A DNA stretch of 48,406 nucleotides from an uncultured Methanobrevibacter sp. (GTDB taxonomy: Archaea > Methanobacteriota > Methanobacteria > Methanobacteriales > Methanobacteriaceae): positions 1 through 48,406 of the forward strand of contig NZ_CADAJR010000015.1 in the NCBI RefSeq assembly GCF_902788255.1. Reading direction: 5' to 3'. Numbering within the stretch: the first letter of the stretch is position 1; the number at the start of each line of letters is the position of its first letter. The notes below the pieces were generated by a model that saw only the letters and a list, made by a program, of their open reading frames with translations, made no database searches and was not told where the DNA came from. The translations under genes and the position numbers were made by a program. Positions 8,145 to 42,317 of the stretch are shown here, in pieces.

Positions 8145-8155
8145 AACAATCCCAT

Positions 8156-8902: not shown

Positions 8903-8913
8903 AATTTCACCAG

Positions 8914-10170
8914 TTAAATAAAATCTCCTTTTGGTCTTGCTTCAATTCCCAATTTCTTATACATGCTTCTGGTTGCAGGATTTGATTCAATAGCCAAATA
9001 TCTATCTCCATCATCTCCGTGTTGAGGCATTACCTCATTTTCCATCCAGTATTTCTTCAATACATGGGGTTGGCGATTTCCAAAATTCCAAAATGTTTCA
9101 TCCGGCTCAAATCCGGTTTTCTCTTTAAGGTCCCTAAGAATTGCATAAGACCTTCTGTAAGGACTAGCTGTTATTAAAATAACATAATTATCTTTAATTA
9201 AACTGATTAAATCCGTTTCATATTTTTGGGATTTGATTTTTTCAACCATTGGCAACCATTTTATTTCCTTGGAGTTGGCTATTAAAGTATAATTTAAATC
9301 CAAAAGAATTATCTTGTCTTTAGGAATTTTTAATTTATCCTCACAAATTTCTTCCTCTTCATCTTCAGTTTCTATTAATTTAATTCCACAGTACCCGCAG
9401 AATTCATTTTCGCTATCGTTTACTATTCCACATACAGGACAGGAATTTAATTCCAATACGATTGGTGCATGGTCTGAACCCATTTGGTCTTTTAGGATGT
9501 ATGAATCTGTCAATGTAGCCTCAAAAGTGTTGGATACAAGGAAGTAGTCAAATCTGTATCCCTTATTAGCTTCCCTGAAGCCTTTTCGGTTTGGCCACCA
9601 TGTGAAATTGTCCCCATCTGTATTGAACTTTCTGAATGCATCAACATATTTTGTCAATATTTCCTTAAACCATTCCTGCTCTTCTGGAAGGAATCCTGAT
9701 TTGCCTTTTATATTTTTAGGATTTTTAGCATCAATCTCAGCAGATATCCTATTGAAGTCTCCACAGATTATTGATGGCTTGTTTGATTTGTAAACGTATT
9801 CTGTGAACCCATCATAGAATCTGAATTTGCGATCCAGTCTTTCAGGTGAACTGGAACCTGATGGACAGTAAACATTATACAGATAAAAGTTTTCAAACTC
9901 CATTCTGATTACTCTTCCTTCAGCGTCAAACTCCTTATCGCCAAAACCTTTCCTGACGGAAAGTGTTTCGACCTTTGTATAAACCGCTGTTCCATATTTA
10001 CCCGGTTCAGATGACGGATAACCATAAAGTGTGTAATTTTCAATTTCAGGAATATCAGAAGTCCTTACTTCCTGAATACATATTATATCAGGGTTTTGTT
10101 GTTCAATAAGTTCTTTAACATCATTTAATCGTTTATTAATGCCATTAACATTCCAGGAAATAATTTTCAT
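8914..10170 (-). CDS. Exonuclease III-like protein fused to zinc ribbon and HAD domain
   Basis: A 418-residue three-part protein. Residues 1-245 are an exonuclease III/AP endonuclease domain: SWNVNGI, IICIQEVR, YNVYCPSGSSSPERL, SIICGDFN, and SDHAPIVLEL. Residues about 246-264 form a zinc ribbon (CPVCGIVNDSENEFCGYCG). Residues 285-418 are a HAD-like domain with the nucleophile motif ILLDLNYTLI, a threonine/serine motif VILITAS and a late YLAIESNPATR motif. ExoIII enzymes remove 3' blocks and cut at abasic sites; HAD domains of polynucleotide kinases remove 3' phosphates. The fusion therefore suggests DNA-end cleaning, which is inference. The zinc-ribbon-HAD part exists as a separate gene at 44029. 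First gene of the operon. Confidence 0.88.
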   Translation of the reverse strand: MKIISWNVNGINKRLNDVKELIEQQNPDIICIQEVRTSDIPEIENYTLYGYPSSEPGKYGTAVYTKVETLSVRKGFGDKEFDAEGRVIRMEFENFYLYNVYCPSGSSSPERLDRKFRFYDGFTEYVYKSNKPSIICGDFNRISAEIDAKNPKNIKGKSGFLPEEQEWFKEILTKYVDAFRKFNTDGDNFTWWPNRKGFREANKGYRFDYFLVSNTFEATLTDSYILKDQMGSDHAPIVLELNSCPVCGIVNDSENEFCGYCGIKLIETEDEEEEICEDKLKIPKDKIILLDLNYTLIANSKEIKWLPMVEKIKSQKYETDLISLIKDNYVILITASPYRRSYAILRDLKEKTGFEPDETFWNFGNRQPHVLKKYWMENEVMPQHGDDGDRYLAIESNPATRSMYKKLGIEARPKGDFI

Positions 10171-13042: not shown

Positions 13043-13768
13043 ATGGACTTTAGGGAGGAGGATGCTCTGCGCTATATCAATATGGCACTTGATTTGGACA
13101 GTGACAATGCAAGGAACTGGAACAAAAAGGCGATAATTCTTGAGGCCATGAAAAGATACCCTGAATCGGAGGAGTGCTATGACAAGTCACTGGAACTTGC
13201 ATTCGACAATCTTGTAAGCGACAATGAGGCGAGAATGCTTTATGACTGGGCATATGTATTGATTGATGAGTCAAAAACACTGCCGAACGGATTGGACAAA
13301 TTGGAAAAGGCAAAAGAGATAAACAAAAAAGCGCTTGAAACACGTCCGGGGATTAATAGTGAGGAGTCAATTGACAAGTACCTCAACCAGAGAGATGAAA
13401 TCAACCGCCATATCAATGATGAAAGGGAATATCTGAAAAACCTTGAAACCCTAAAGTCAATTGACAAAGGTGAACTGTTTACAATAGCCGGAAGATTCTA
13501 TTATGAAAACAGCACCGACCTTGCAGCGGGAATGCTCCTAAAGCTTTTAAGAGAACCGGAAAACGAGTTTGACCGGGATGCGATTGCAGTATATGCCGGA
13601 GATGTAAAAATTGGCTACGTTGCAAACAGTGCCTCAACAAAACATGAACTGACCTCATCATCTTCAGAGTTAAAGGATAATATTCATGACACAGCTCAGG
13701 CAATCTGTTTATTCAACCTGCAAAGACATTCAGACACACGGTTTCTAATTGGAAAAATAATTGAATAA
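13043..13768 (+). CDS. TPR-like protein with C-terminal HIRAN domain (probably truncated)
   Basis: A 241-residue frame. Residues 1-125 are helical repeats of TPR type (ALRYINMALDLDSDNARNWN, KKAIILEAMKRYPESEECYD). Residues 140-240 are a HIRAN domain with the hallmark LREPENEFDRDAIAVYAGD and KIGYVAN. HIRAN domains are DNA-binding modules found with helicases and nucleases (HLTF recognises 3' single-stranded ends). The annotated Met lies inside the TPR region and lacks a ribosome site, and the codons before it have no alternative start back to the TAA at 12983. Expression is therefore doubtful. The intact paralogue at 41378 has a zinc ribbon in place of this gene's acidic N-terminus. Confidence 0.75.
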   Translation: MDFREEDALRYINMALDLDSDNARNWNKKAIILEAMKRYPESEECYDKSLELAFDNLVSDNEARMLYDWAYVLIDESKTLPNGLDKLEKAKEINKKALETRPGINSEESIDKYLNQRDEINRHINDEREYLKNLETLKSIDKGELFTIAGRFYYENSTDLAAGMLLKLLREPENEFDRDAIAVYAGDVKIGYVANSASTKHELTSSSSELKDNIHDTAQAICLFNLQRHSDTRFLIGKIIE

Positions 13769-13808: not shown

Positions 13809-13844
13809 AAAAAAAAATAGAAAGCAGATGAATTGAATTCATCT
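13809..13844 (-). terminator. Intrinsic-type terminator of the adhesin gene
   Basis: On the minus strand the stop codon is followed at once by AGATGAATTCAATTCATCT (13826-13844), a perfect hairpin, and then a T9 run (13809-13817). Confidence 0.6.
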
Positions 13845-15585
13845 ACATTTTCACTTTCGCAGCTACTTTAACTGTATCCTTCAGGTATGTTGCCTGATAG
13901 ATGATCTTTTTACCGACCTTGAGCTTATTGAGAACCGGTTTTTTAACGGTTATCTTTGCAACACCCTTCTTGTCGGTTTTTGCACTGTATTTTTTACCGT
14001 TGAACTTGAATGTGACCTTTTTGCCTTTGAGGTATTTTCCGTTAAGCTTTGAGAGGGTTGCCTTGAGAACCAGTTTTTTCAGGGATTTCTTGACGGTCAC
14101 CTTTTTCAGGCTCAAGAGATGCTTTACGGTCAATTTTTTTGTTGCGGTTTCGCCGAGGGCAGTGATTTTAACCTTGTATGTGCCCGGAGCCTGGGACACC
14201 TTGAACTTGACAATGCCCCTGGAATCTGTCCTTAATGTTTTGAACGCCCTGTTGTTTATCTTAACAACGACCTTGACACCGTTTTTAAGATTCTTGTCAC
14301 TGTCATATATCCTGATTGAATAATAGGAACCTTTCCTGTAGACGGTTTTCAGGTTGGATGCTGAAATATAGCGGTCAGAAAACACACAGCCTGTTATCCT
14401 GGAGGTGGCTGTTCCGAAGCTTTCATCAGTATACACCGCACCGTTGCTTCTGGCGTTAGGGGAGTTCTTGATGAATTTTGAGTTGGTGACCTTCAGCTCA
14501 CCGGAATAACCGTTATAAATAGCTCCCCCTTCAGGAGTATTGCTCTGCTCTGAAAGTGAAAACACTCCTGCAATGTTTTCCTTGAAGGTGACATGGTCCA
14601 TATTCACCACAGCATTTGAGATATAGATTGCACCCCCATCATCGGATACAGCATTCTTATCAAACTCACAGTAGTTCACATTCAGGGTAGGTCTCTCACT
14701 GTTCCATATGCTAACAGAAATCGCTCCTCCAAACCTTGAGGCAAAATTGTCATAGAACAAGGTATTATCTATTTGGGAAACGCCTCCACCGATGGCATAG
14801 ATTGCACCACCTTCAGAACCCGTATGCGGTCCGGCATTGCTTCTGAACTCGGAATTTGAAATCCTGAAGGTTCCCCTCCAGTTATAGATGGCACCTCCGC
14901 CATCCGCCTTGTTTGCTGTGAACCTGCTATTTTCGACAATCAGGTTTCCCCGGAAGTTATCGATGGCCCCGCCATAATACTCGGCCTCATTGTTTGTGAA
15001 TGTTGAGGATTTGACTTTCAGGTTTCCATCGCTTAAAATTGTACCTGAAGCAACCGCATTGGGATACTTGCTCCAGTGGGAATCACCGCTTATCCAACCG
15101 TCATGTTCCGCTTTGTTAGTCTCAAAGACACACTTGTTTATCTCCAAATCCGCCTCACTTTTGATTGCTGAGCCGTAATTGGCAAAGGCATTGGTGAATC
15201 TGATGTTGTTCAATACCACGCTGACGCCCGGTCCGATTTCAAATATTCTTGATTTGGACTGTGCATCTAAAGTATGCCCGTTTCCGTTGATTGTCAGGTC
15301 CTTGGAGATATAGATACCCTTCGTATAGAATCCCTCATCATATTTGTAATCATTTACCAGGTTAAGGGTTGACCCTGCCTCGGCACTGTCAATCTTGCTT
15401 TTAAGTGTGGTGAATGTGCCGTCATCAGCTTTTAAAACATCACCCTCTGATACACTCAATTCATCTACTGAAATTTCTTCCTGCGCTATCGCATCATCTG
15501 TTGAGTTTGCATCACTTGCGCTTACAGCACCAATCGCCAGAATCGCCACTAGTATGCAAACAGATATTATATGTTTAAACTTCAT
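13843..15585 (-). CDS. Adhesin-like surface protein, beta-helix plus Ig-like tail
   Basis: A 580-residue secreted protein. The signal peptide (FKHIISVCILVAILAIGAVS) is followed by an acidic linker. About 330 residues form a right-handed beta-helix with the GGAIYN/GGAI repeat of polymorphic outer membrane/adhesin proteins (SGTILSDGNLKVKSSTFTNN; AEYYGGAIDNFRGNLIVENS). Residues about 420-580 are two lysine-rich Ig-like domains (KNGVKVVVKINNRAFKTLRT; LNGKYLKGKKVTFKFNGKKY). This is the standard layout of Methanobrevibacter adhesin-like proteins, which sit at the cell surface and contact hosts or partner microbes. The ATG at 15585 is preferred to one at 15609 because GGGAGTAATGTT precedes it. Confidence 0.9.
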   Translation of the reverse strand: MKFKHIISVCILVAILAIGAVSASDANSTDDAIAQEEISVDELSVSEGDVLKADDGTFTTLKSKIDSAEAGSTLNLVNDYKYDEGFYTKGIYISKDLTINGNGHTLDAQSKSRIFEIGPGVSVVLNNIRFTNAFANYGSAIKSEADLEINKCVFETNKAEHDGWISGDSHWSKYPNAVASGTILSDGNLKVKSSTFTNNEAEYYGGAIDNFRGNLIVENSRFTANKADGGGAIYNWRGTFRISNSEFRSNAGPHTGSEGGAIYAIGGGVSQIDNTLFYDNFASRFGGAISVSIWNSERPTLNVNYCEFDKNAVSDDGGAIYISNAVVNMDHVTFKENIAGVFSLSEQSNTPEGGAIYNGYSGELKVTNSKFIKNSPNARSNGAVYTDESFGTATSRITGCVFSDRYISASNLKTVYRKGSYYSIRIYDSDKNLKNGVKVVVKINNRAFKTLRTDSRGIVKFKVSQAPGTYKVKITALGETATKKLTVKHLLSLKKVTVKKSLKKLVLKATLSKLNGKYLKGKKVTFKFNGKKYSAKTDKKGVAKITVKKPVLNKLKVGKKIIYQATYLKDTVKVAAKVKM

Positions 15586-15778
15586 AACATTACTCCCAAT
15601 AATGCCCATTTAAGCACTATCTTATAAGTTATTATCTGTTGAAAAAAAGATATAAGTCATCCAAAGCAATTGCTTTAATCAAAGTCCGGATTATCTTCAA
15701 TTTGAGATGCATGGAATATGATTTGCCAAATCATCCATCTTCAAAAGCTAAAAAAGGCCTGTTTCATCACACATGGAA

Positions 15779-16612
15779 TTAGTCATCCAAATTTTTCAGG
15801 CATTTAATCAAATCATCAGTATTGCTGATTTGCTTTTCCAGATCAATATCCAAATAAAGTTTCTTTTCAGCTCCAAAACTTGAAGAGAGTATCATTTGCC
15901 TTCCAAAAATTTCATAGCCTTCACTGATGACATTATGACCGATCACCATAACATTGGACTCGACAATATCCAAAAATCGGGAAACATCCTCAATTGAATA
16001 ATCCTTTTCAAATCTGGACCACAATACATAATACACTGACCTGTCGAGATATTCCTCACCTTCTATAATTGATTTGTAGTCGTCATATGTCTTTATTTTT
16101 GGTGAAGGTCCCGCATGGGATACAAAAACACCATTTTCACACTGTATAAAAAAGGGGATTGACTTGAAAAAATCGATATAATCTGATAAATATGGGTCCA
16201 AAGAGCCTTTTTTCTCGATAATCAGCCTTTCAAAGTCTATTTTCTGATTGATATTTGCCTTAAATACATTGGCGCCAACAATATGGGCCCATTCATGATT
16301 GCCTAAAATGGGATGAAAGTTATCATATTTCTTATACTTATCAATCATGTCCTCCAGCACTTCCAGGGAATAATCCTTTTTATAAATGCTGTGAATAAAA
16401 TCTCCCGCTATGATAATATGACAATCGGGATCATTGAAATCCCATTTCTCCAAATACTTATTATAATCATCCAGATCGCCATGCAAATCTGTGAAGATTA
16501 AAGCTCTGCCTCTTTTAGGCAATTTCATCAAACGGCCATTTTTACACATGTTATCATCTAAAAAAAAGGGTAATATTTGAAATCGGTTTTCAAATACTAC
16601 CTGAAGTTTCAT
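15779..16612 (-). CDS. PPP-family metallophosphatase (Ser/Thr phosphatase-like)
   Basis: About 277 residues with the calcineurin-like phosphoesterase motifs: IFTDLHGD (D-x-H-G, near 40), IIIAGDFIH (GD, near 70), ILGNHEW (GNHE, near 107), FVSHAGPSP and VIGHNV. The spacing fits PPP phosphatases and their ApaH-like relatives. The usual GDxVDRG motif is altered to GDFIHS, so substrate choice may differ. It is the last gene of the Hsp70 operon and its probable role is to reverse the phosphorylation made by the kinase at 21835. Starts at 16630, 16612 and 16549 are possible; 16612 has AGGAT in front and overlaps the upstream stop, which suggests coupled translation. Confidence 0.85.
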   Translation of the reverse strand: MKLQVVFENRFQILPFFLDDNMCKNGRLMKLPKRGRALIFTDLHGDLDDYNKYLEKWDFNDPDCHIIIAGDFIHSIYKKDYSLEVLEDMIDKYKKYDNFHPILGNHEWAHIVGANVFKANINQKIDFERLIIEKKGSLDPYLSDYIDFFKSIPFFIQCENGVFVSHAGPSPKIKTYDDYKSIIEGEEYLDRSVYYVLWSRFEKDYSIEDVSRFLDIVESNVMVIGHNVISEGYEIFGRQMILSSSFGAEKKLYLDIDLEKQISNTDDLIKCLKNLDD

Positions 16613-16616
16613 TATC

Positions 16617-17000
16617 CTAAAATATTGCATTCAATGCGACTGCAAGCAGGCATGCCAATAAAAAGATAATGGCCACTGACACAATATTTATTTTATTGAA
16701 ACTAAAAAAAGTCCTGATTTTTGAATTTTTCAATTCACGACATTTTTTTAATCCATAAAAGGCTTCGGCATTATTCTCATCAATTTCCAAAGCACGGATG
16801 AAATATATTTCAGCGGATTCAAAATCCCTGTTCTGCGCATATATTTTTGCCATAATGATTGAAACTTCAATGGCATGATGGGAATTAGCTAAGGGATGCA
16901 ATAGGTTGAATGCGTCCCTGTACCTGCCGTCACCAGCCAATTTTTTAGCTATCTCGATAGTGACTCTTTCACTGCCAGAGTCCATATATCCATTCGCCAT
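16617..17000 (-). CDS. TPR protein with C-terminal membrane anchor
   Basis: A 127-residue protein. Residues 10-90 form two to three TPR-like helix pairs (AGDGRYRDAFNLLHPLANSH; ESAEIYFIRALEIDENNAEA). Residues 104-125 are a hydrophobic tail (VSVAIIFLLACLLAVALNAI), so it should be tail-anchored with the TPRs in the cytoplasm. TPRs commonly hold chaperone or kinase partners; here it could tether the Hsp70 or phosphatase to the membrane (inference). The start follows AAGTGATTTAA. It lies 16 bases after the hsp70 gene and overlaps or abuts the phosphatase gene. Confidence 0.8.
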   Translation of the reverse strand: MANGYMDSGSERVTIEIAKKLAGDGRYRDAFNLLHPLANSHHAIEVSIIMAKIYAQNRDFESAEIYFIRALEIDENNAEAFYGLKKCRELKNSKIRTFFSFNKINIVSVAIIFLLACLLAVALNAIF

Positions 17001-17016
17001 TTAAATCACTTCATGC

Positions 17017-19533
17017 TTATCTTAACCTGTTGTCTTTCTGGCCAGGGTCTTCTTTGACATCATCGGATGCCTGAGCGAACACTGAAGGCTTGGTGATTTT
17101 ATACAATTGACTTACAATTGACCTTAATTCATCAATATTTCCATTTGATAGGGCGGAATTACCTCTTTGAATCAAATCATTTGCAGCATTTTGATCTATA
17201 AATTCGCCTGAAGATGCAAATTCTAAGAATGTGAACATTATAAGCTCAGTTTCATGTATTTGAGCGAAAATGAACTGCATTTTATCCTTGACATTTGCAA
17301 GCAACTGGTCATTTTTGGTTTCAACCGCATTATCATACATGCCTTTCATCTGTTCGTACAGCACTTTGGTTTGAGGTTCGGCCTTGTCAAGATTTGCCTC
17401 AATATCCGCAATTAACTGGTCAGTCTCGTCCTTAAGTTCATCCCAGGACAGGAGACTGTTGAGAATTATCTCGATATTGTCCAGAATATTGGCGAATTCA
17501 TTAATCCTTTTACTTGCATTGTCCAATGCGTCAGGGTCGGTTTCACTGTTTCTCAGGAAAGTCTCAATGTTGTCGATCATGTTTTCAGATATTATCTGGT
17601 TGAGATAATTTTGAATTTGCATATTGGTTGTGCCTGCAGATTCAGTAAGAATCTTATTGTAACGTGACTTATGTTCCTCAAATCTTTCAATGAGAACGTC
17701 ACGAGACTTTTTCTCGGATGTGATGACCATACCCTCATCAAATTCCTGGTCCAGATATTCAATGTATACGCTGCTTTCAATGTTCATTGATTCATTGATG
17801 GTTACGGACAATTCAATTTCACTGTCCGCCGGCAGGTCCCTTTTAACGTCATTACCTGTTATTTTCAAATGACCAATCAGGGTATTCCTGTCGGCCTTAA
17901 TCATGTTTCCCTGATATAATGGAATATAAACTTCATCTGAGGCATTTCCCCTATGAACCGGGTTGGAAGACTTGTAGGTTTTCCTGAAGTGGAACGGCAG
18001 TTCAGTGGATTTTTCTGCAATGACATCCAGTTCATTTCCAAATTTACCCAATCCGATTGTATGGGACAGTTTTGGCCTGTCGGGAATGATGTCTATTTTA
18101 TACTTGATGGAATTCACACAGTTAGGGGACAGATTGGCAATATTTCCTGAAGAGTCATAAATTTTAATCTGATATATGTTGTAATCGTTTTCGTTTTCAG
18201 CCAGAAGCTGTGTTGTGAAAAATCCGTTTTCGGCAACCGGGATTCTTCCTGATGAATAACCGGTGACGCCGTTTACAAATTCAATTGAGTATCCTTGAGA
18301 TGATCCCTGCGGATTAATGATTTTTCCGCTCACATTGAATTCAATGTCATCCCCTAAAGTCTCATACATCAACTCAACGCTTACAAAGCCTTCATCAGGC
18401 TCTTCATCGGTGACGTGCATAAGTTTTGTTCCGGCATATATTGCAGCACCTCTTGCAACGACGGTTGTAGGGTCGATTGAATATTCCAGTGGAATGTTGA
18501 ATTCCTCGGTCAGTCTTTCATGTATATATGGACTTAGGGTTGAGCCTCCAACAAGGATGATTTTGGTGACATCGGAAATGGACAGGTTCTCATCCTCCAA
18601 AGCTGTGTGACAATGGTTTATGGTACGGTCAACGTAAGGCCTCATTATTTCGTCCAGCTCCTGACGGGTCATGTCATATTCAAAATCGAACACGTCCCCA
18701 TCATCGCTGATGAAGAAGTTTTCAATTTCAACTTCCGCAGTGTCATATGTGGACAAGTCGGTTTTGGCTATTTCGGCCGCCTTTTTCAATTTGGCGAAAT
18801 GCTTCAAGTATTTTTCATTGTCACGGTTGAAATCGGTCAAGCCCAATTCATCATTCAGGGCAGGCACAAATACCTTATCCACAATATCCCAGTCGATAAG
18901 CTTACCTCCCAGGTATGCGTCACCCTGGTTGTTGACGTTGACGATTTCATCCTCGGTCTTTTTCATAATGGATACATCGAATGTACCTCCACCCAAATCG
19001 TAGATTAACCAGAGCTCATTATCTGTTGAATTTCCAAACCCGTATGCCATTGCGGCGGCAGTCGGTTCCTGCAATAATATGACTTCCTTAAAACCAGCCA
19101 GTTCAGCCGCTTCAGTGGTTGCCTGAGTTTGAGGAGCAGTGAAATCAGCAGGAACTGTAATTACAGCTGCACGAAGGTCCTTTTGATACATCTGTTTAAC
19201 TGTGGCCCTCAGATTTTTAAGGATTTCCGCAGACAACTGCACAGGAGTCATTCTCATGCCGCTTTTTTCAAATTCATAAACATGATCGGAACCCATTCTT
19301 AATTTGAATTCGGCAAAACCGTTTTTAGGGTCGGTTGCAATCTTATTTTTTGCCTTATCCCCGACAAAAATGGTTCCATTCTTTTTAATGTAAACTGCTG
19401 ATGCGACAAAATTCTTATTGTCTGTTTTATTTGGAACAACAATAGTGGTGTCCCCGTCAACCTTAGCAATAGAACTTGTGGTTGTACCTAAATCAATACC
19501 GTAATCTATTGTACCTGTATTTTCCTCTACCAT
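17017..19533 (-). CDS. Divergent, extra-long Hsp70 (DnaK-like) protein
   Basis: An 838-residue protein against about 610-640 for DnaK. Residues 1-380 are a full actin-like ATPase: GIDLGTTTSSIAKV, LLQEPTAAAMAYG, LIYDLGGGTFDVSIMK and ILVGGSTLSPYI are all intact, so ATP hydrolysis is expected. The linker and substrate domain are not canonical: the usual DVxPLSLGIE is replaced by FVSVELMYETLG, and two beta-rich segments (390-510, 520-640) follow. Residues 640-838 are a long helical region with coiled-coil character (LLSWDELKDETDQLIADIEA). The partners GrpE-like and J-like are encoded directly upstream. It is therefore a dedicated chaperone or an ATP-driven switch, not the housekeeping DnaK. AAAAAGGTGATATT precedes the ATG. 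Confidence 0.9.
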   Translation of the reverse strand: MVEENTGTIDYGIDLGTTTSSIAKVDGDTTIVVPNKTDNKNFVASAVYIKKNGTIFVGDKAKNKIATDPKNGFAEFKLRMGSDHVYEFEKSGMRMTPVQLSAEILKNLRATVKQMYQKDLRAAVITVPADFTAPQTQATTEAAELAGFKEVILLQEPTAAAMAYGFGNSTDNELWLIYDLGGGTFDVSIMKKTEDEIVNVNNQGDAYLGGKLIDWDIVDKVFVPALNDELGLTDFNRDNEKYLKHFAKLKKAAEIAKTDLSTYDTAEVEIENFFISDDGDVFDFEYDMTRQELDEIMRPYVDRTINHCHTALEDENLSISDVTKIILVGGSTLSPYIHERLTEEFNIPLEYSIDPTTVVARGAAIYAGTKLMHVTDEEPDEGFVSVELMYETLGDDIEFNVSGKIINPQGSSQGYSIEFVNGVTGYSSGRIPVAENGFFTTQLLAENENDYNIYQIKIYDSSGNIANLSPNCVNSIKYKIDIIPDRPKLSHTIGLGKFGNELDVIAEKSTELPFHFRKTYKSSNPVHRGNASDEVYIPLYQGNMIKADRNTLIGHLKITGNDVKRDLPADSEIELSVTINESMNIESSVYIEYLDQEFDEGMVITSEKKSRDVLIERFEEHKSRYNKILTESAGTTNMQIQNYLNQIISENMIDNIETFLRNSETDPDALDNASKRINEFANILDNIEIILNSLLSWDELKDETDQLIADIEANLDKAEPQTKVLYEQMKGMYDNAVETKNDQLLANVKDKMQFIFAQIHETELIMFTFLEFASSGEFIDQNAANDLIQRGNSALSNGNIDELRSIVSQLYKITKPSVFAQASDDVKEDPGQKDNRLR

Positions 19534-19558
19534 ATAATATCACCTTTTTTAATTATTC

Positions 19559-20170
19559 TCAAGAAGAAGGAGAAGTAACAACAACTTCACCGTTTAAGAT
19601 CAGTTCGCCATTGTAGAATATGGACGGTTTAATTGTTTCCGTTATTGTACTTTCTTCGACATTATCATCCGTTTCAAAAACTAAAACATTCAAAGCCATA
19701 CCATCATAATATTTGGAGTTGGTATGGTCCTTTATTACAAATCCGTTGTCTTCTAAAAATTTCAAAACAGCCTTCAGCTGATTTTCAACATATTTAAGGG
19801 GTTTCAGGGAATTGTTAACATTTTTTGTAATGTATGTAATTTCATTGTCCTCAAACTCCTCATTTGATTTTATCATTGATTCTACCCTTTTCAGGTTATT
19901 GTTTGCCTTATAAAATTCAATCCTGTTATTCGCCCTCCATACACGAAGTATAACCTCTTTCATCATGTCCATATCCAAAGAATTGTCCTGAGAATTTTTC
20001 AATTCCCCATTCAATTCAGCGATTTCATATTTAAGAACTTTTAACTCACGCTGCAACTTGGCAACTTCATCATTTTCCTCATTTAACCTATCAATAATAT
20101 AATGATAGTCCCATTTGGAGGATATCCTAAATTCTTCGGGAAATTTTAGCTGACGATTATTGAAAAACAT
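19559..20170 (-). CDS. GrpE-like protein
   Basis: About 203 residues. Residues 20-60 are a coiled coil (LNEENDEVAKLQRELKVLKY), residues 65-135 are helical, and the C-terminal 60 residues have the GrpE beta-domain pattern: a loop with YYDGMALNVLVFE in the place of FDPxxHEAV, then ESTITETIKPSIFYNGELIL, then GEVVVTSPSS as in the GrpE ending LRPAxVxVxx. GrpE is the nucleotide exchange factor of Hsp70, so placing it directly before the hsp70 gene makes sense. Sequence similarity is weak and the assignment rests on layout plus context. The start at 20170 is chosen because GGAGGAGC lies just upstream; longer frames overlap the preceding gene. Confidence 0.6.
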   Translation of the reverse strand: MFFNNRQLKFPEEFRISSKWDYHYIIDRLNEENDEVAKLQRELKVLKYEIAELNGELKNSQDNSLDMDMMKEVILRVWRANNRIEFYKANNNLKRVESMIKSNEEFEDNEITYITKNVNNSLKPLKYVENQLKAVLKFLEDNGFVIKDHTNSKYYDGMALNVLVFETDDNVEESTITETIKPSIFYNGELILNGEVVVTSPSS

Positions 20171-20183
20171 AAGCTCCTCCATA

Positions 20184-21821
20184 TTAAATGAATCCAAGGA
20201 AGTACGCAATTATTGCAAAGATTATTATTATAATAATTATGCACCCGATGGCTCCACCTTTTCCTCCACCGGAACTTGATGAACTGCTTGAACTGGATCC
20301 GAGACTGCTTAAATCAACACCGGAATCCTGTAACTGTTTAATTATTTCTTTTTGTTTTTCTATTTCAGGCAATTGCTCTGTGAAGAATTCCATGTCCTTT
20401 TTAACTTTTTCCCTAACCTCATCGGAGGTGGCGTATATCTGTGCGGTTCTTAAAAAGCCCAGTAACGTAGTCTTATTTCTTATTACCCTATCAATATCGG
20501 ATTCGGATTGGTTAACATATGTAATAACAAAATTGTCCAAGGATAGGGCAAAACCATCAGACAACACTTCCTTATTTGGAGAATCGGAATTATCCAATTC
20601 CCTCTGCATATCTTTAGAATATGTTTTCACATAGGGTAATGATCTATTTTCGACATTTTCAATAAATGAAGTGATCCTTTTATGGATTGCATCATCCTGG
20701 GCAGATGATTTAACGGATTTCATCACCTCTTCCAATTGTTCAAGGTTGTTTTCAATTTCCTGCTTCACTGAAATTGTATAAGCCATTTCAACTAAACCTT
20801 TAAATACCTGTTTAATTTTATCCAAATCAAATCCGTCGAATGAATCTGCTCTGTTTACAATTGAAACATAATATCCTTTAACTGATTTTGCTATATTATC
20901 ACTTAACAATTGGAATTGAGCATCATCACCAAAGTACTGTTGTAGAATGGCGATTTCATCTTTAATACTGGCTAAAAAGCTTTCAATTTTTGGAATATCT
21001 GACTGTTTTTCATATTCATACTTTTCAAACGCTTCAAATTTCTCATTAACGGAGTCATATAGGGAATCAAAAATGCCTTTTAAAGCCTGTTTTTTGGTAA
21101 GCTCATCAAAATCAGAATTTCTAATCAATTCAATGTGTTTGCCAAAATTAGAGTTCTCATGTTTTTCATAATAATCATTAGCGAAGGATGCATTTATGGA
21201 TAAAATTGCGACCGGGAATTGTCTGAAAATATCCTCAACATAATCCTGCTTGATTGTAGGGTCATTCAATTGCTGAACCCTCAATAATGTTAAATTTTTA
21301 AAGTTATCATTTGATAATGTTTTATGCCATTGTTTTAAAGATTCTCTCCAGTAACCCTGACTGGAAGACAAATCTCCCCTAATTTCAGCATCAATAGCCA
21401 TTATGTGATTATATACGGCAAGATTATGTGAAGCATTAGCCGCAGTGGAGGAATTCCAAAGGGATACTGCACCATCAATATCAACTTTTTTCAAAGCCAT
21501 TATTGTTTCGTCTCTTTTATTGCCCAAGTCTTCAGGCCAAAACCAAAACAATTCATCAATAAATCGGCTTCTAGGCTTAGACAATCTATTTTTAGCATTC
21601 TGATAATCTAAAAAATTTGGTTTGGGTTCAATGGGAAAAGCGAGATTATTGTAAACATCCAAACTTTCCGTATTGTCCAAACTATTAAGATTTTTCATAG
21701 CTTCTATTCTACTAAATTCATTGTTTATTTTATTCGGCTTTGCATTGATGGGCAAATTAAAAATTCTAAACCCATTCTGCAAGTATATATTTTTTCCATT
21801 TATTTCATTTGACAGATCCAT
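20184..21821 (-). CDS. J-domain-like protein with C-terminal membrane segment
   Basis: A 545-residue protein. Residues 12-60 (NGFRIFNLPINAKPNKINNE) have the opening pattern of a J domain (Nxfxxlxlpxxaxxxxixxx) but no HPD triad, and are followed by SRFIDELFWFWPED, an aromatic block that I associate with TPR proteins of divergent Hsp70 clusters. The middle (90-480) is helical and charged. A serine/glycine linker leads to a final hydrophobic anchor (AIGCIIIIIIIFAIIAYFLG). It may recruit the Hsp70 to the membrane; without HPD it would not be expected to stimulate ATPase in the usual way. GGAGGGTAATTT precedes the ATG; the gene sits between kinase and GrpE-like genes. Confidence 0.65.
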   Translation of the reverse strand: MDLSNEINGKNIYLQNGFRIFNLPINAKPNKINNEFSRIEAMKNLNSLDNTESLDVYNNLAFPIEPKPNFLDYQNAKNRLSKPRSRFIDELFWFWPEDLGNKRDETIMALKKVDIDGAVSLWNSSTAANASHNLAVYNHIMAIDAEIRGDLSSSQGYWRESLKQWHKTLSNDNFKNLTLLRVQQLNDPTIKQDYVEDIFRQFPVAILSINASFANDYYEKHENSNFGKHIELIRNSDFDELTKKQALKGIFDSLYDSVNEKFEAFEKYEYEKQSDIPKIESFLASIKDEIAILQQYFGDDAQFQLLSDNIAKSVKGYYVSIVNRADSFDGFDLDKIKQVFKGLVEMAYTISVKQEIENNLEQLEEVMKSVKSSAQDDAIHKRITSFIENVENRSLPYVKTYSKDMQRELDNSDSPNKEVLSDGFALSLDNFVITYVNQSESDIDRVIRNKTTLLGFLRTAQIYATSDEVREKVKKDMEFFTEQLPEIEKQKEIIKQLQDSGVDLSSLGSSSSSSSSSGGGKGGAIGCIIIIIIIFAIIAYFLGFI

Positions 21822-21834
21822 AAATTACCCTCCA

Positions 21835-23592
21835 TTAAATTGTAGTGCCGTTTTTTAATATTTTAAGCTTGTTTTTATACCTGTTTTTAATTGTCACATC
21901 AAGCAACATGGCCAACTCCAAAAATGTGCTGGCTTCTTTAGGCTTATTATAAGCATTACTGAACAGCGCTTCCTTTTCCAAAAGTTTAGCATCTTTTTTA
22001 GATAACAAATCAAATGCAAAAGCATAATCATTTTTTATTAGAGTGTTTTCATCAGCTAATTTTTTAAGGTTGAATATACCCTCATCAATGGTATCGGGAT
22101 TTTGCATTAAGATAAAACATTTCCACAACTCCAATTTTGAACCGTATACCGATTTTAATTCAGGGTCCTGATTAAAGGCCTGATTTAAATAATCCACTCC
22201 ACGTTCATAATCTAATGAATTAGAAACCGCCCATAATGCATCTCTAATCAATTCATCAGAGTTCACTTCCGGTTTTTCTTCAATTATTTCCGGCTGCTTT
22301 TGTGAAGGCACTTCACTTATCTCCCCTCCCCCGAAAATCTCCTCAAGATTTTCAGATACGAACGGATTGCTGAGAGAACCTAAATCCGCTTTAAAGGGAG
22401 AATCATCATTTTCAGACACGTCGGATTGATTTTGGTTTTCAAAAACACTCTCAGTACGCACTGATTTATTCGATTGATTGTTTTTTAAAGAAACAGAACC
22501 AATGCTACCAGATTCGTTAGAATGATCGGTTTTTAAAGAAACAGAACCTATGCTACCAGATTCGTTCGAACGGTCGGTTTTTAAAGAAACAGAACCTATG
22601 CTTCCGGAATCATTAGGCTGGTCGGATTCCTTTGCAGTTACAGAAACCCTTTCCGGTTCGGAAGCCTTAGAGTCTTTTTTAATGTCCTCAGATTTGGGAG
22701 CGGATGAATCTTTAGAATTTTCCCATTCGGTAATCGCATCCAAAAGTTCCTTTGCATCCCTATATCTTTTTTCAGGATCGGTTGAAATTGCAGTGAAAAC
22801 GATTTCCTCCAATTTCTCATCACGAACAAGAGGATTATACTCACTAATCGGTTTTGGCTTATTTTTTAACCAACTGCCGGTCATTACATCAAACTCACTA
22901 TCAATAGGATAAGGGAAGTTATCAGTTAAAAGCATGTAAAATGTAACGCCCACAGCAAAAATGTCAGTTGAAGTGTCATCTTTCTTTTCTAGAAATTCGG
23001 GTGCCTTAAAAGCCAGAGTTCCTTTTGCACTTGCATATAAACTTGATGGGTTAACCGCCTTTACCAATCCGAAATCGGTTAATTTTGCTATCGGACAACC
23101 ATCATTATCAAAATCAACCATGATGTTTTGGGGTTTAATGTCTCTATGAATCATTGGAGGATTTTCCGAATGCAGGACATCCAAACCATAACAGATTTGT
23201 TTAATGAGAGTCACTACAATATCCACAGGCATAAATCTGGCGCCGAAGGATTTCCAATACTCATCCAAATCCTTTGAATAGAAATCCATTTCAAAAAATA
23301 CATGACCGTCACCATCATCTGTTGTGAAAATTCCCGCATCATGGACCTTAACAATATTTTTATGGTCAAATTTCGTAAGCAATATTGCCTCTTCCAACAA
23401 TTTTTCTATCGAAGAGGGATTTCCCTTAATGTCCGGTGAATTTTTAAAGATCTTGATTGCACGTCTGTTCTTTAAATACTTGTGTTTTACACGATAAACT
23501 TCACCAAACGCTCCCCCGCCCAGGTATTTTTCAACAATATATTTTCCGTTCAATATACTATTAATTTTTAACATTGTGTTCTGTTCAGACAT
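21835..23592 (-). CDS. Hanks-type Ser/Thr protein kinase with repeat linker and helical tail
   Basis: About 585 residues. The kinase domain (residues about 15-290) is complete: glycine loop YLGGGAFGEVYRV, RAIKIFK with the ATP-binding Lys, MIHRDIKPQNIM, LTDFGLVK, a GTLAFKAPEF activation segment and DIFAVGVTFYMLLT. It should be active in the cytoplasm. Residues about 300-400 form a serine-rich linker with three near-identical 20-residue units around SGSIGSVSLKTD, good candidates for phosphorylation or docking. The rest is helical repeat (TPR-like: DYERGVDYLNQAFNQDPELK). No membrane segment. ATG 23592 is preferred; a GTG at 23610 overlaps the clp gene end, with AGGTGA between. Confidence 0.9.
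   Translation of the reverse strand: MSEQNTMLKINSILNGKYIVEKYLGGGAFGEVYRVKHKYLKNRRAIKIFKNSPDIKGNPSSIEKLLEEAILLTKFDHKNIVKVHDAGIFTTDDGDGHVFFEMDFYSKDLDEYWKSFGARFMPVDIVVTLIKQICYGLDVLHSENPPMIHRDIKPQNIMVDFDNDGCPIAKLTDFGLVKAVNPSSLYASAKGTLAFKAPEFLEKKDDTSTDIFAVGVTFYMLLTDNFPYPIDSEFDVMTGSWLKNKPKPISEYNPLVRDEKLEEIVFTAISTDPEKRYRDAKELLDAITEWENSKDSSAPKSEDIKKDSKASEPERVSVTAKESDQPNDSGSIGSVSLKTDRSNESGSIGSVSLKTDHSNESGSIGSVSLKNNQSNKSVRTESVFENQNQSDVSENDDSPFKADLGSLSNPFVSENLEEIFGGGEISEVPSQKQPEIIEEKPEVNSDELIRDALWAVSNSLDYERGVDYLNQAFNQDPELKSVYGSKLELWKCFILMQNPDTIDEGIFNLKKLADENTLIKNDYAFAFDLLSKKDAKLLEKEALFSNAYNKPKEASTFLELAMLLDVTIKNRYKNKLKILKNGTTI
22484..22620 (-). repeat. 60-bp tandem repeat inside the kinase linker
   Basis: Two full units and a partial third of a 60-base direct repeat (TTTTTAAAGAAACAGAACC ... 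on the plus strand), encoding SGSIGSVSLKTD plus a variable SNE stretch. Units differ at a few positions only, so copy number could change by slippage while keeping the frame. Confidence 0.7.
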
Positions 23593-23606
23593 CTTAAACC
23601 CACATT

Positions 23607-25889
23607 TCACCTTTTAACATTAAAACTTAATTTATTTTCATGTAAACTAACATTAACCTCATTGTCAAAGCTGATTTTCTTTTTAAGAATCAAATCCGCC
23701 AATGGGAACTCAACCATTTTTTCAATGAACTTATCAAGATATTTTACTCCATTTTCCTTATCAAATCCTTTTTTACCTAAAAATTCAAAAACATCATCAT
23801 CAAAAGTTAACCTAATGTGTTTTTCCGAATAAAGCCTATTGGAGAGTTTTTCGATGGCTTTTTTAACCAGGATTTCAAAATCATTAACATCCAGCTGTTT
23901 AAATACGACAAAATCGTCTATCACATCCAACAGGTCTGTTCTGTAAAATCTGTTCAGATTCTTCAATTCCTGATTTTTATCACCGCTCGAGGAGGCTCCA
24001 TAAATCACATGATAATCTCCGGATTCATGAACCAAAAATCCGGTTACTATAAAAATGCAGTTATTGGCTATAATCTCATTGTTCTTTGAATCGACAATAA
24101 TTCCCCTGTCAAACAGCTGCAGCAGAACATCAACCACTTGAGGATGGGCCTTTTCGATGTTGTCAAACAATATGACTGAAGATGGATTGTTCTTAATGTA
24201 ATTTGTCAGAAATCCGCCTTCATCATTATTTTTATATCCGGGAGGGGAACCTATCAGCCTTGTAATTGTTGAACTGTCGCTAAACTCAGAAAGGTCAACC
24301 CTAAGAAATGATCTTGTATTTTCAAATAGAAATTCGGATAAGACTGATGCCGTATACGATTTGCCGACACCTCTTGAACCTAAAAACATGAACACCGCAA
24401 GTGGCCTTTCAATGTCCTGAATGCCTAAAAGGGCTTTTTTAATCCTGTTTGAAATCGTGTTCATCGCCTTTTTCTGACCGATTATTTGGCCGTTGAGGAA
24501 ATCCTCCATATGCTCCAGTTTATCTATTGCAAACGAATAGTCAATGACGGGAATGCCTCTCCAGTCTGAGATAACCGACTTGACATCCTGTTCGGTTACA
24601 CAGTTGTCTGAAATGGAATCCTCAGAAGAGTTGATTTTTGGAATCACCTTTCTGGAGCATGCCTCATCAATAACATCCAATGCCTTATCTGGCAGGTTCC
24701 TATCGATTATGTACTTGACTGACAAGTGCACTGCGGAATTTATTGCCTCATCGGAAATTCTTACATTATGAAACTCCTCATATTTTCCCTTCAGGTGATG
24801 CAAAATGTTAATGACCTCATCGGAGGACGGTTCCTTAACCATGATCGGTTGAAATCTTCTCTCAAAAGCGGATTCCTTTTCAAAATATAACGTGAATTCT
24901 TCCAGAGTGGTTGCTCCGATAATTGATATGTCCCCATTGGCCAATGCGGATTTAAACATGTTTGATGCATCCAAGCTTCCGGAACTGCCGGTTCCGATAA
25001 TGGTATGGGCCTCATCAATGAACAGAATCAGGTTGGGATCCTTTTTAGCCTCATCTATTAAATCGCTGATTTTCTCTTCAAATTCACCGCGATATTTGGT
25101 TCCCGCAATCAAAGAGCCCATATTCAATTCGACAATGGTTTTGCTGTTCATGTTTTTTCCAAGAGTGCCCTTGGATATTTCTATTGCCAATTTTCGAACC
25201 AATGTTGACTTACCGACTCCCGCTTCACCAACAATCAAGGCGTTATTCTTCCCACGCTTATTTAATGTCCTCACCAGTTTCAGCAGTTCTGCGTCCATTC
25301 CAATTACAGGGTCCAGCTTGGATTCCCTTGCAAGTTCAGTCAGGTCAATGCCGTATCTGCTCAGGATGGAATTGGGATCGGGCAATTCCGCAAAGGTCTT
25401 ATTATCAATGGTCTCAAGAATTTCAGTGCGACTAATGCTGAAAAGTTCCAGGGTCTGATTGATGCATTCAATGTCCTCTTCCAAAATCGCTTTCAGCAGG
25501 TGAACCGCACGAAATTCTATCAAGCCTTCAGCAATGGCGATTTTTTGAGCTTTTTTAAACAGGTCTTTTGAATATTCACTTCTGTGAATGACATTACCGT
25601 GATCTGTGAAGGAACCCTGTTCAATATTCAGTCTCAACAGGTGGCGAAACGAGGTCAGTGAAATATCGAAATTGGAAAAGATTCCCTGAATTTCATTACA
25701 TTCCTGTTTAATTGATTGGAATATGCTTGAATCTATTTGTTTCTCATTGGTTTTGAACAGGTTTACGACCTTATCCAAACTGAATATTCCAATCAACAAA
25801 TGTTCGGGTTCGATGAATTCCCTATTTGACATTAAGACTTCTGCCAGGCTTACTTCCCAAATGACATGAACGGAATTAGAAAAGTTCAT
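23607..25889 (-). CDS. Clp/Hsp100 AAA+ ATPase with degenerate second domain
   Basis: About 760 residues in the ClpA/ClpB/ClpC layout. Residues 1-150 are the Clp N-domain (EFIEPEHLLIGIF; EFRAVHLLKAILEED). The first AAA+ domain is complete: GEAGVGKS, ILFIDEAH, and the arginine fingers in AFERRFQPI. There is no M-domain insertion of ClpB type. In the second AAA+ domain Walker A is present (GSRGVGKS) but Walker B reads ILFDNIEKAH instead of DEIEKAH, and the arginine-finger motif NRID is DVID. Hydrolysis by this domain is thus doubtful. No obvious ClpP-binding loop was found. It would unfold or remodel proteins with the Hsp70. GAGAGGGATATT supports ATG 25889. Confidence 0.9.
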   Translation of the reverse strand: MNFSNSVHVIWEVSLAEVLMSNREFIEPEHLLIGIFSLDKVVNLFKTNEKQIDSSIFQSIKQECNEIQGIFSNFDISLTSFRHLLRLNIEQGSFTDHGNVIHRSEYSKDLFKKAQKIAIAEGLIEFRAVHLLKAILEEDIECINQTLELFSISRTEILETIDNKTFAELPDPNSILSRYGIDLTELARESKLDPVIGMDAELLKLVRTLNKRGKNNALIVGEAGVGKSTLVRKLAIEISKGTLGKNMNSKTIVELNMGSLIAGTKYRGEFEEKISDLIDEAKKDPNLILFIDEAHTIIGTGSSGSLDASNMFKSALANGDISIIGATTLEEFTLYFEKESAFERRFQPIMVKEPSSDEVINILHHLKGKYEEFHNVRISDEAINSAVHLSVKYIIDRNLPDKALDVIDEACSRKVIPKINSSEDSISDNCVTEQDVKSVISDWRGIPVIDYSFAIDKLEHMEDFLNGQIIGQKKAMNTISNRIKKALLGIQDIERPLAVFMFLGSRGVGKSYTASVLSEFLFENTRSFLRVDLSEFSDSSTITRLIGSPPGYKNNDEGGFLTNYIKNNPSSVILFDNIEKAHPQVVDVLLQLFDRGIIVDSKNNEIIANNCIFIVTGFLVHESGDYHVIYGASSSGDKNQELKNLNRFYRTDLLDVIDDFVVFKQLDVNDFEILVKKAIEKLSNRLYSEKHIRLTFDDDVFEFLGKKGFDKENGVKYLDKFIEKMVEFPLADLILKKKISFDNEVNVSLHENKLSFNVKR

Positions 25890-25933
25890 AATATCCCTCT
25901 CAAATAGCATCAAATACAATGAATGCTTTTTAA

Positions 25934-27601
25934 CTAATTAAATTCTATTTTACCTCTGTTTAGTAGTATATTGGAATTATCTTTCGCTGATTTCTTGTTG
26001 AGTACGGTTTGCGAGTCAATAGTTAACAGACAATTTTTCTGATTGTAGATTGCATTGTTCTCAAGGATGCCTCCGATTCTAAAGTCACACCCCACGATTG
26101 TTAAGACCGATATGAACTGGGTCAGTTCAACGGTATTGTCATTTTTTAAAATGCCCTCGGGACCGTTGCTGATAAAATGAGAGAAACTGCTTGCGGTATT
26201 TTTTCCAAAAATGCACCTGTCGAATTTTGACTTGCTTAAATTGCAGATTACTCCACCCAGTTTTATGGCGCTATTGGAGGCGAAATTGCAGTCAACAACT
26301 TTAATGTATCCGTCATCGATGAGATTTGTGGAATGATTATTTGAATAATGAACCAGATTTTTGGCCATATTGAATATGGCTCCACCGAATGTTGAGGAAT
26401 TCCCCTTAAAGGAGGTTGAGGATATCTCAGCATGACCGTAATTCATGACTGCACCTCCACCCTTTGAAAAATTGTTTGAGAAACTGCATTCCTCTGCCTT
26501 TAAATCTCCATAGTTATATATTGCACCTGCAAACATCTCTGAAGAATTATTTCTGAACTTTGAATCCCTTATGGATAGGGAGGATTCATGATAATTGTAA
26601 ATCGCACCGCCATTATGGGATTTATTCTCTTTAAAAATTGACTTGAAAATGTTTAACTTGTTAAGATTGGCGATTGCGCCACCGGACAATTTGCTTGAAT
26701 TGTTTTCAAAATTGCATTTTTTAGCACTTAACATGTTTCCTTTATTGAAAATAGCACCCCCATCACTTTCAGAATGATTGTTTAAGAATTTACAATCAAA
26801 AAAGGATACCGATGCATCCTTATCAATGAAAATGGCTCCTCCACCGGTCTCATGTTTTTCACTGCCAACGAAGCTGTTATGGCCATTTTTGAAAGTGCAG
26901 TTTTTGATTAGAATATTTTTCCCGGTAATGTTGAAAATACGATTTAAAAAATTCGCATCAATGAAATGCTTATTTCCATCAATTACGAGATTGTCCTCAT
27001 CTAGAGAAATTCCCTCTCGATATCTGGATTTTTCATCCTCTTTTATTTTAATATCAAAGTCCAAATTAATTGATTTTCCACCATTTTGAATGAGATCATT
27101 GAGATAATCAAAATTTTGTGAACTTGGCGGTTTCTGCTGTTCGGGAGTAATGAATTTTTTAAAGGCCTTTTTCCATTGGAGGGAATATTCCTGAGGACTC
27201 ATTGTGAATTTTAAAATGGACTGCCTGTTTCTGAGACGCAACTTAAGTCCTCCGGTCAATTGACTCTCATCAAGATAAATTAGAATAATGTCCTTGTTTT
27301 CATCATCTGCAAATTTAATTTCATTAATAACGTTGGAAGATGCAAGGGAATTTTTGCTGATGAAACATACGAATAGAGAACATGCTTCCAAAGCTTCGGC
27401 AATGGCATCATCCCAATCTATTCCAATGTCAATACCCTGGTCATACCAGATATTATATTTTTCATTTTTAAATTTCTTTAATTCGGAAAATACTATCTCA
27501 GCATCTTTGTGCGAATAGCTAATAAAGATATATTTTCCATCACCATCATAAGCAGGAAACGGTCTTTTTTTAATGAAATCATTCAATTTATCATCATTCA
27601 T
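25934..27601 (-). CDS. TIR domain fused to intracellular beta-helix
   Basis: About 555 residues. Residues 22-155 are a TIR domain: KYIFISYSHKDAEIV, IWYDQGIDIG, WDDAIAEALEACSLFVCFIS and NSLASSNVINEIKFA. Glu94 lies where TIR NADases such as SARM1 keep their catalytic Glu. Residues about 195-545 form a beta-helix of GGAI/NNS repeats (NHSESDGGAIFNKGNML; NNSSKLSGGAIANLNKLNIF) like those of secreted adhesins, yet there is no signal peptide, so the repeats should be cytoplasmic. TIR domains either signal by self-association or consume NAD; the helix could be a sensor or assembly platform. First gene of the eight-gene operon, 14-45 bases before clp. ATG 27601 is chosen over GTG 27610. Confidence 0.88.
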   Translation of the reverse strand: MNDDKLNDFIKKRPFPAYDGDGKYIFISYSHKDAEIVFSELKKFKNEKYNIWYDQGIDIGIDWDDAIAEALEACSLFVCFISKNSLASSNVINEIKFADDENKDIILIYLDESQLTGGLKLRLRNRQSILKFTMSPQEYSLQWKKAFKKFITPEQQKPPSSQNFDYLNDLIQNGGKSINLDFDIKIKEDEKSRYREGISLDEDNLVIDGNKHFIDANFLNRIFNITGKNILIKNCTFKNGHNSFVGSEKHETGGGAIFIDKDASVSFFDCKFLNNHSESDGGAIFNKGNMLSAKKCNFENNSSKLSGGAIANLNKLNIFKSIFKENKSHNGGAIYNYHESSLSIRDSKFRNNSSEMFAGAIYNYGDLKAEECSFSNNFSKGGGAVMNYGHAEISSTSFKGNSSTFGGAIFNMAKNLVHYSNNHSTNLIDDGYIKVVDCNFASNSAIKLGGVICNLSKSKFDRCIFGKNTASSFSHFISNGPEGILKNDNTVELTQFISVLTIVGCDFRIGGILENNAIYNQKNCLLTIDSQTVLNKKSAKDNSNILLNRGKIEFN

Positions 27602-27610
27602 CCAAATCAC

Positions 27611-36367: not shown

Positions 36368-36437
36368 AATATCACCACATATTATATTTTGTATTAACAA
36401 TATGATAACAATTTCTATTTGAAAATGGGACAAGTAA

Positions 36438-42277: not shown

Positions 42278-42317
42278 TTTTTTCACCTTGCCATTAACTC
42301 AAAACACTTTTAATAAT

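What the first reader, a model, noticed from the sequence alone, without database searches (positions are those of the whole stretch)
15779..27601. Eight-gene operon: TIR, Clp, kinase, J-like, GrpE-like, Hsp70, TPR anchor, phosphatase
Seen: eight same-strand genes with overlaps or gaps under 30 bases (except 45 bases or fewer after the first), all with intact key motifs apart from those noted. Established: Hsp70 works with J-proteins and GrpE; Clp ATPases cooperate with Hsp70; PPP phosphatases oppose Hanks kinases; TIR domains are signalling or NAD-consuming effectors in immune systems. Inference: this is a self-contained, phosphorylation-controlled chaperone machine coupled to a TIR effector, perhaps for defence, stress sensing or programmed cell death. 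I know of no described system with this gene set.
Basis: partly seen in the sequence, partly recalled or inferred. Interest (0 to 1): 0.92.

Follow-up and report, generated by a model that had tools for sequence, protein, structure and literature searches.

The report
Chaperone operon with swappable immune effectors
A gut-type methane-making archaeon carries an eight-gene cassette in which a second, unusual Hsp70/Hsp100 chaperone machine with its own protein kinase and phosphatase is tied to an NAD-cutting-type TIR protein; the same core recurs in other archaea and bacteria with different partner genes, which fits an undescribed immune or stress switch gated by chaperones, although no function has been tested.

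Summary
In detail: eight same-strand genes (15779-27610) encode TIR-beta-helix, Hsp100, Ser/Thr kinase, J-like membrane protein, GrpE-like protein, Hsp70, TPR-membrane protein and PPP phosphatase. The identical order recurs in three other species of the genus (type A), with purifying selection on every gene (dN/dS 0.05-0.18). Five genus-mates and one member of another genus keep the core but have a TPR/HExxH-protease gene instead of TIR (type B). The J-GrpE-Hsp70 triad recurs in Methanothrix and several bacterial phyla, often with kinase and Hsp100, in about 0.3-2% of sampled genomes. TIR genes adjoin such Hsp70 loci in three Methanobacteriaceae settings and in Methanothrix (again TIR-beta-helix); one ORF fuses TIR to Hsp70-lid and J segments. 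A normal DnaK/DnaJ/GrpE set lies elsewhere. No Pfam, NCBIfam or PADLOC model covers the system and I found no paper on it; nearest are predicted HSP70/GrpE-containing GAP1-N2 GTPase systems, whose GTPase is absent here. Corrections: no HPD motif; GrpE only probable; Hsp100 lacks the M-domain and its second ring is degenerate; TPR gene shortened. Best reading: membrane-tethered, phosphorylation-set chaperone switch controlling a TIR NADase; the defence role is inferred.

The parts
25934..27610 (-). TIR domain (residues about 28-130) fused to a right-handed beta-helix (PMP-type repeats), no obvious signal peptide; predicted NAD-cleaving effector or sensor
   Evidence: Pfam TIR_2 2e-16, Chlam_PMP 2e-17; Glu97 invariant in 7 TIRs, aligned with the Glu column of AbTir/Cat1-type TIRs; start may be 27601 (ATG)
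23607..25919 (-). Hsp100/Clp AAA+ ATPase, two rings; D1 intact, D2 degenerate in type A, no M-domain
   Evidence: ClpB/ClpA models 6e-174/9e-160; alignment A4 and motif check
21835..23610 (-). Hanks-type Ser/Thr protein kinase with Ser-rich tandem repeats and a C-terminal helical region
   Evidence: Pkinase 1.7e-41; catalytic motifs intact
20184..21821 (-). J-like (HPD-less) N-terminal module, helical/TPR-like body, C-terminal hydrophobic (membrane) helix; marker protein of the system
   Evidence: Family alignment A6 with invariant WFWP motif; AF2 model pLDDT 82, all-helical; weak hhalign to DnaJ E=0.063, best of its controls
19559..20209 (-). GrpE-like nucleotide exchange factor candidate; true start probably near 20167
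   Evidence: Pfam GrpE 0.012, Dehalococcoidia homologue 9.6e-4; hhalign to canonical GrpE 0.0022 versus 0.25-0.6 for controls
17017..19533 (-). Hsp70 with an extra beta-rich segment between the NBD and the substrate-binding beta domain, and a long helical lid
   Evidence: HSP70 5e-74; alignments A5 and to own DnaK; domain reading after residue 376 is by eye
16617..17000 (-). TPR plus transmembrane helix protein, shortened here (127 aa against 293-304 aa in relatives, which keep a domain beyond the membrane helix)
   Evidence: TPR matches; comparison with L013, L044, L045
15779..16630 (-). PPP-family (PP1-like) phosphatase; translated start probably 16549
   Evidence: Metallophos 2.4e-12; PP1 1.2e-7 with alignment A3
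16569..16601 (-). Terminator-like hairpin followed by T8, between the TPR and phosphatase genes
   Evidence: 14-bp stem; the number of hairpins in the region is not above shuffles, but this is the longest

Best explanation
It is a dedicated, accessory Hsp70-Hsp100 chaperone switch that controls an effector, used by this archaeon probably against viruses or comparable proteotoxic attack. SHOWN: the eight genes travel together; the J-like/GrpE-like/Hsp70 triad is the most stable core, with kinase and Hsp100 as frequent partners; the partner genes are swapped between TIR-beta-helix (type A), a TPR/HExxH-protease plus small membrane protein (type B) and a double-TIR-RyR gene nearby (another genus, G138); the TIR keeps the catalytic Glu; the kinase is intact; Hsp100 D1 is intact while D2 is degenerate in type A; two components carry hydrophobic membrane-type helices. 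INFERRED: the J-like and TPR proteins hold the Hsp70 at the membrane. The Hsp70/Hsp100 pair binds either the TIR-beta-helix protein or a misfolded or foreign client. In resting cells the chaperones keep the TIR protein monomeric or sequestered. When clients (viral proteins, envelope damage) occupy the Hsp70, or when the kinase phosphorylates a component, the TIR protein is released or assembled, its TIR domains meet and cleave NAD+, stopping growth. The phosphatase resets the threshold.
For: Identical 8-gene order in 4 species; dN/dS 0.046-0.178 for all eight genes; effector replacement with a conserved core in type B; J->GrpE->Hsp70 in 21 of 25 J-loci, including Methanothrix and bacteria; TIR-beta-helix gene beside J-GrpE-Hsp70-Hsp70 in Methanothrix, double-TIR-RyR gene beside Clp-J-GrpE-Hsp70 in G138 and beside a kinase-Hsp70 fusion in G084; TIR within 10 kb of 6 of about 34 system-type Hsp70 loci, 3 lineages, expected about 0.3; an ORF fusing TIR + Hsp70 lid + J segment that is not a chimera of the genome's own operon copy; FHA phospho-reader genes beside type B and C loci; TIR Glu invariant and aligned with NADase TIRs; patchy distribution typical of accessory systems; separate housekeeping DnaK/J/GrpE. 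Literature: chaperone thresholding of effectors is an existing proposal (PMC7159879) and DnaJ mediates phage sensing by bNACHT25 (PMC12169576).
Against: No virus, NAD or phosphorylation data. No PADLOC model for the operon and no strong defence island: only PDC-S18 16 kb away. No relatives in viral contigs with a strict pattern and none on plasmids. Bacterial core loci show no TIR in the flanks examined. J-likeness is weak and HPD is absent. The TIR-Hsp70-J fusion comes from one short MAG contig and may be decaying. PPP was found only in Methanobacteriaceae in this sample. The TIR-proximity estimate was made after seeing the pattern.
Confidence: 0.45

Rival explanations
1. Dedicated proteostasis machine for cell-surface proteins: a membrane-tethered Hsp70/Hsp100 set that handles the many beta-helix adhesin-like proteins of these methanogens, with the TIR-beta-helix protein as a decoy client that reports folding load; not an antiviral system.
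For: Two membrane-anchored parts; the window and neighbouring loci are rich in secreted beta-helix/Ig-like proteins; the TIR protein's own beta-helix resembles them (33% over 199 aa to 13843-15609); Methanothrix again pairs TIR with a beta-helix; an OmpA domain ends the TPR partner in Thermodesulfobacteriota.
Against: Bacterial and type B members show no beta-helix partner; presence is patchy (9 of 67 genus genomes carry type A or B); the catalytic TIR Glu is kept.
Confidence: 0.25
2. General phospho-signalling or envelope-stress switch (kinase, FHA reader, phosphatase) in which chaperones remodel a signalling complex and TIR acts as a protein-interaction module only.
For: Kinase-Hsp70 gene fusion with FHA, PPP, RtcB, SIS and RyR neighbours (type C); kinase in 15 of 25 J-loci.
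Against: TIR catalytic residue invariant across all association types.
Confidence: 0.2
3. The genes are merely neighbours or a degenerating cassette in the window species.
For: Window TPR gene is shortened, a terminator-like hairpin separates the phosphatase, Clp D2 is degenerate.
Against: Same order in four species, strong purifying selection, D2 degeneration shared by all type A copies.
Confidence: 0.05

Closest known systems
GAP1-N2 GTPase-centric conflict systems, HSP70/GrpE theme (Kaur et al. 2020, PMC7159879)
   Same: HSP70 + GrpE + J- or TPR-fused partner, sometimes a second NBD-only HSP70 (also seen here in Methanothrix L099); a separate theme has kinase + phosphatase; interchangeable effectors
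   Different: No GTPase or FNIII partner in the operon; has Hsp100, and PPP instead of PP2C/vWA; TIR partner; archaea. The GAP1-N2 systems are themselves computational predictions
Canonical DnaK-DnaJ-GrpE-ClpB disaggregase
   Same: Same families of Hsp70 and Hsp100, GrpE-like factor
   Different: HPD-less J-like protein with membrane helix, Hsp70 with extra segment, Hsp100 without M-domain and with degenerate D2; kinase, phosphatase and TIR added; a separate canonical DnaK/J/GrpE set is in the genome
TIR NADase defence systems (Thoeris, Cat1, AbTir-type TIRs)
   Same: TIR fold with conserved catalytic Glu position
   Different: No ThsA/SLOG/SAVED/CRISPR partner; TIR fused to a beta-helix and linked to chaperones
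CoCoNuTs and TerY-P triads (PMC11090510)
   Same: Hsp70-like unit and kinase + phosphatase modules within multi-gene conflict loci
   Different: No McrBC GTPase, vWA, PP2C or HEPN nuclease here; the Hsp70 here keeps an intact NBD
bNACHT25-DnaJ guarding (PMC12169576)
   Same: Immune sensing routed through an Hsp40/Hsp70 chaperone
   Different: There the host's housekeeping DnaJ is used; here a private chaperone set is encoded with the presumed effector

Membership tests
GAP1-N2 HSP70/GrpE conflict systems | TRAFAC GTPase plus GAP1 protein in the operon | tested here: not met
   None of the eight proteins matches a GTPase family apart from P-loop cross-hits within Clp; none in the flanking proteins scanned
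GAP1-N2 HSP70/GrpE conflict systems | HSP70 with GrpE and J/TPR partner | tested here: met
   J-GrpE-Hsp70 order in 21 of 25 loci; GrpE probable and J weak only
Canonical Hsp70-ClpB disaggregase | J-domain with HPD motif | tested here: not met
   No DnaJ match, HPD absent in 13 homologues
Canonical Hsp70-ClpB disaggregase | ClpB M-domain for DnaK docking | tested here: not met
   No insertion between the D1 lid and D2
Canonical Hsp70-ClpB disaggregase | Intact Hsp70 nucleotide-binding domain | tested here: met
   Alignment to own DnaK; phosphate-1/2 motifs and GGST kept
GrpE family | Significant similarity to GrpE | tested here: inconclusive
   Pfam 0.012 (window) and 9.6e-4 (L090), below cut-off; hhalign 0.0022, controls 0.25-0.6; AF2 model poor, no GrpE in fold search
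TIR NADases | Catalytic glutamate | tested here: met
   E97 invariant in 7 TIRs, aligned with the AbTir/Cat1 Glu column
TIR NADases | NAD+ cleavage | not testable with these tools
   Needs an enzyme assay
Thoeris | ThsA (SIR2/SLOG) partner | tested here: not met
   No such domain among the eight genes
PPP phosphatases | PPP metal-site motifs | tested here: met
   D48, H50, D77, N111-H112, H172, H232 invariant; PP1 E=1e-7; the DRG of the second motif is not conserved

The most novel reading that the evidence does not exclude
A previously undescribed class of prokaryotic immunity in which a private, phosphorylation-controlled Hsp70/Hsp100 machine senses foreign or misfolded protein and licenses interchangeable effectors (TIR NADase, HExxH protease, TIR-RyR), shared between methanogens and several bacterial phyla.
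Probability: 0.35. Interest if true: 0.93.

Novelty: new variant of a known kind. Interest (0 to 1): 0.78.

Why it matters
If the mechanism holds, it would be a chaperone-gated immune switch with its own Hsp70, Hsp100, kinase and phosphatase, making testable the idea that prokaryotes sense infection through protein-folding load. It would also give a first function to a J-like/GrpE-like/Hsp70 triad present in archaea and bacteria, and would add a candidate defence system for gut methanogens, where few are known to me.

Tried and rejected
The AF2 model of the J-like protein (pLDDT 82) found no significant PDB match, only TPR/helical repeats at E>0.02. The GrpE-like model was poor (pLDDT 61) and its fold search uninformative. 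A link between the window NADAR-TPR gene (592 aa) and 592-aa genes beside NBD-only Hsp70s in G081/G027 was considered and rejected: no BLAST similarity. Viral and plasmid carriage: none found. Defence island around the operon: not convincing. The type B protease profile hit in L095 is TPR repeats with a genuine DnaJ domain, not the protease. Chance arrangement and assembly artefact were rejected because four genomes agree.

Full report
Observation. The window lies in a genome whose genus includes named Methanobrevibacter MAGs: the contig with the type A operon of G069 has the same length (51160) as JAFUIW010000041.1 of a Methanobrevibacter sp.. Eight minus-strand ORFs occupy 15779-27610 in the order TIR-beta-helix, Clp, kinase, J-like, GrpE-like, Hsp70, TPR-TM, PPP. 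Pfam and NCBIfam confirm TIR, ClpB/ClpA-type AAA+, Pkinase, HSP70 and Metallophos, but not DnaJ, and GrpE only at 0.012. PADLOC has no model for the operon; its kinase resembles defence-associated kinases (MADS6, PD-T4-6), as most Hanks kinases would.

Conservation. A genus search with the Hsp70 (67 genomes) found three classes. Type A, 65-67% identical Hsp70: G069, G027, G081, each with all eight genes in the same order. Type B, about 40% identical: G018, G062, G075, G085, G088, plus G149 of another genus. These have Clp-kinase-J-GrpE-Hsp70-PPP followed by a TPR protein with HELTHH (weak Peptidase_M78 match), with a small membrane protein between them in the genus members; no TIR. Type C is a kinase-Hsp70 fusion of about 1170 aa beside FHA, SIS, RtcB, RyR and often PPP genes, in about 20 genomes, including the window's own (G000:C7). 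Between G027 and G081 all eight type A genes are under purifying selection, dN/dS 0.046-0.178. Canonical DnaK, DnaJ and GrpE lie elsewhere (G000:C1), so this is a second, diverged set.

Reach. The J-like protein was used as marker. It is found in 15 of 152 genomes of the phylum, and in 2 of 295, 3 of 345, 1 of 350 and 5 of 289 genomes sampled from the phyla of the Methanothrix, Thermodesulfobacteriota, Dehalococcoidia and Lentisphaerae loci; the seed genomes are counted in these. The genome-contig scan also returned Accumulibacter and Vicinamibacteria. In 25 loci the J gene is followed by GrpE-like and Hsp70 in 21; kinase occurs in 15 and Clp in 15. In Thermodesulfobacteriota (L095) the order is kinase-J-GrpE-Hsp70-TPR/OmpA-Clp-DnaJ/TPR.

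TIR link. TIRs recur beside these Hsp70s: type A; a double-TIR-RyR gene beside Clp-J-GrpE-Hsp70 in G138; a double-TIR-RyR gene beside a type C locus in G084; and a TIR-beta-helix gene next to J-GrpE-Hsp70-Hsp70 in Methanothrix. Within Methanobacteriaceae this is 6 loci of about 34 (3 lineages) against about 0.3 expected; a rough Poisson P for three or more is 0.004. This estimate treats TIR genes as evenly spread and was made after seeing the pattern. One ORF in G027 (L105:1950-3311) joins a TIR (55% to the window's), an Hsp70 lid segment (45%) and a J-protein segment (56%); it is less like that genome's own operon (49, 42, 39%), so it is not an assembly chimera of it. It sits on a 3.7-kb contig and may be a remnant.

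Molecular detail. The TIR Glu is invariant in seven TIRs and aligns with NADase TIRs of the PDB. Clp D1 is intact; D2 of all type A copies lost the Walker-B Glu, sensor-1 Asn and Arg finger, while type B keeps them; there is no M-domain. The Hsp70 NBD is intact, with an extra beta-rich segment before the substrate-binding beta domain (the segment boundary is my reading). The J-like protein has an N-terminal pattern N-x-F-R ... P-x-P ... A-x-x-R-L ... R-x-x-D-E-x-x-W-F-W-P, invariant over 13 homologues, with no HPD; profile comparison with DnaJ is weak (E 0.063) but better than its controls. GrpE-like against GrpE: E 0.0022 over the C-terminal beta domain, controls 0.25-0.6. PPP: the best solved relatives are PP1. 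In the window species the TPR protein lost the domain beyond its membrane helix, and a hairpin plus T8 precedes the phosphatase.

Interpretation. A stable chaperone core with exchangeable partner genes, patchy spread, phospho-control and a TIR with its catalytic residue intact matches the general grammar of chaperone-thresholded conflict systems (PMC7159879), although the defining GTPase of the nearest described systems is absent. The mechanism in the best explanation is inferred beyond the gene set. Main rival: a surface-protein folding system using the TIR-beta-helix protein as reporter. The defence label should not be treated as established: no viral test, no strong defence island, no carriage on viral contigs or plasmids.

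Literature. Searches of the PMC library for the combination returned no description of this system; subscription papers and preprints are not covered, so prior description cannot be excluded.

Noticed in passing
G000:C7:51051-52148 (L010:8187-11717) and about 19 other genus genomes: Kinase-Hsp70 single-gene fusions (about 1170 aa) beside FHA, SIS, RtcB RNA ligase, RyR-domain and PPP genes: a further undescribed Hsp70-kinase locus type.
   Followed up: partly
L105:1950-3311 (G027:C160): Single ORF joining a TIR, an Hsp70 lid segment and a J-like protein segment.
   Followed up: partly
L062:1436-4648 and L101:13842-17132: Double-TIR plus RyR-domain proteins beside Hsp70 loci.
   Followed up: partly
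L050:3694-4878 and L051:1990-3144: Hsp70 NBD-only proteins, 66% identical to the window Hsp70, in the two genomes (G081, G027) that also carry type A operons.
   Followed up: no
window 43184-44026: Match to PADLOC candidate defence family PDC-S18 (3e-44; DUF5655).
   Followed up: no
window 37133-38911: TPR protein with a C-terminal NADAR (ADP-ribose-processing) domain, about 9.5 kb upstream of the TIR gene.
   Followed up: partly
window 13043-13768 and 41378-42286: TPR-HIRAN proteins on both sides of the operon, with relatives near type C loci (L057, L058).
   Followed up: no
window 5867-6796 and 35534-36469; 7440-10170 and 42318-43148: Two SseB-domain genes and several endonuclease/exonuclease/phosphatase-family genes.
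   Followed up: no
L095:6117-8060 and L090:15766-17850: Transglutaminase-like proteins near the core in two bacterial phyla, possible alternative effectors.
   Followed up: no
L103:12898-18669 and L093:236-2023: RNA polymerase large-subunit genes directly upstream of Clp-J loci in two archaeal genomes.
   Followed up: no
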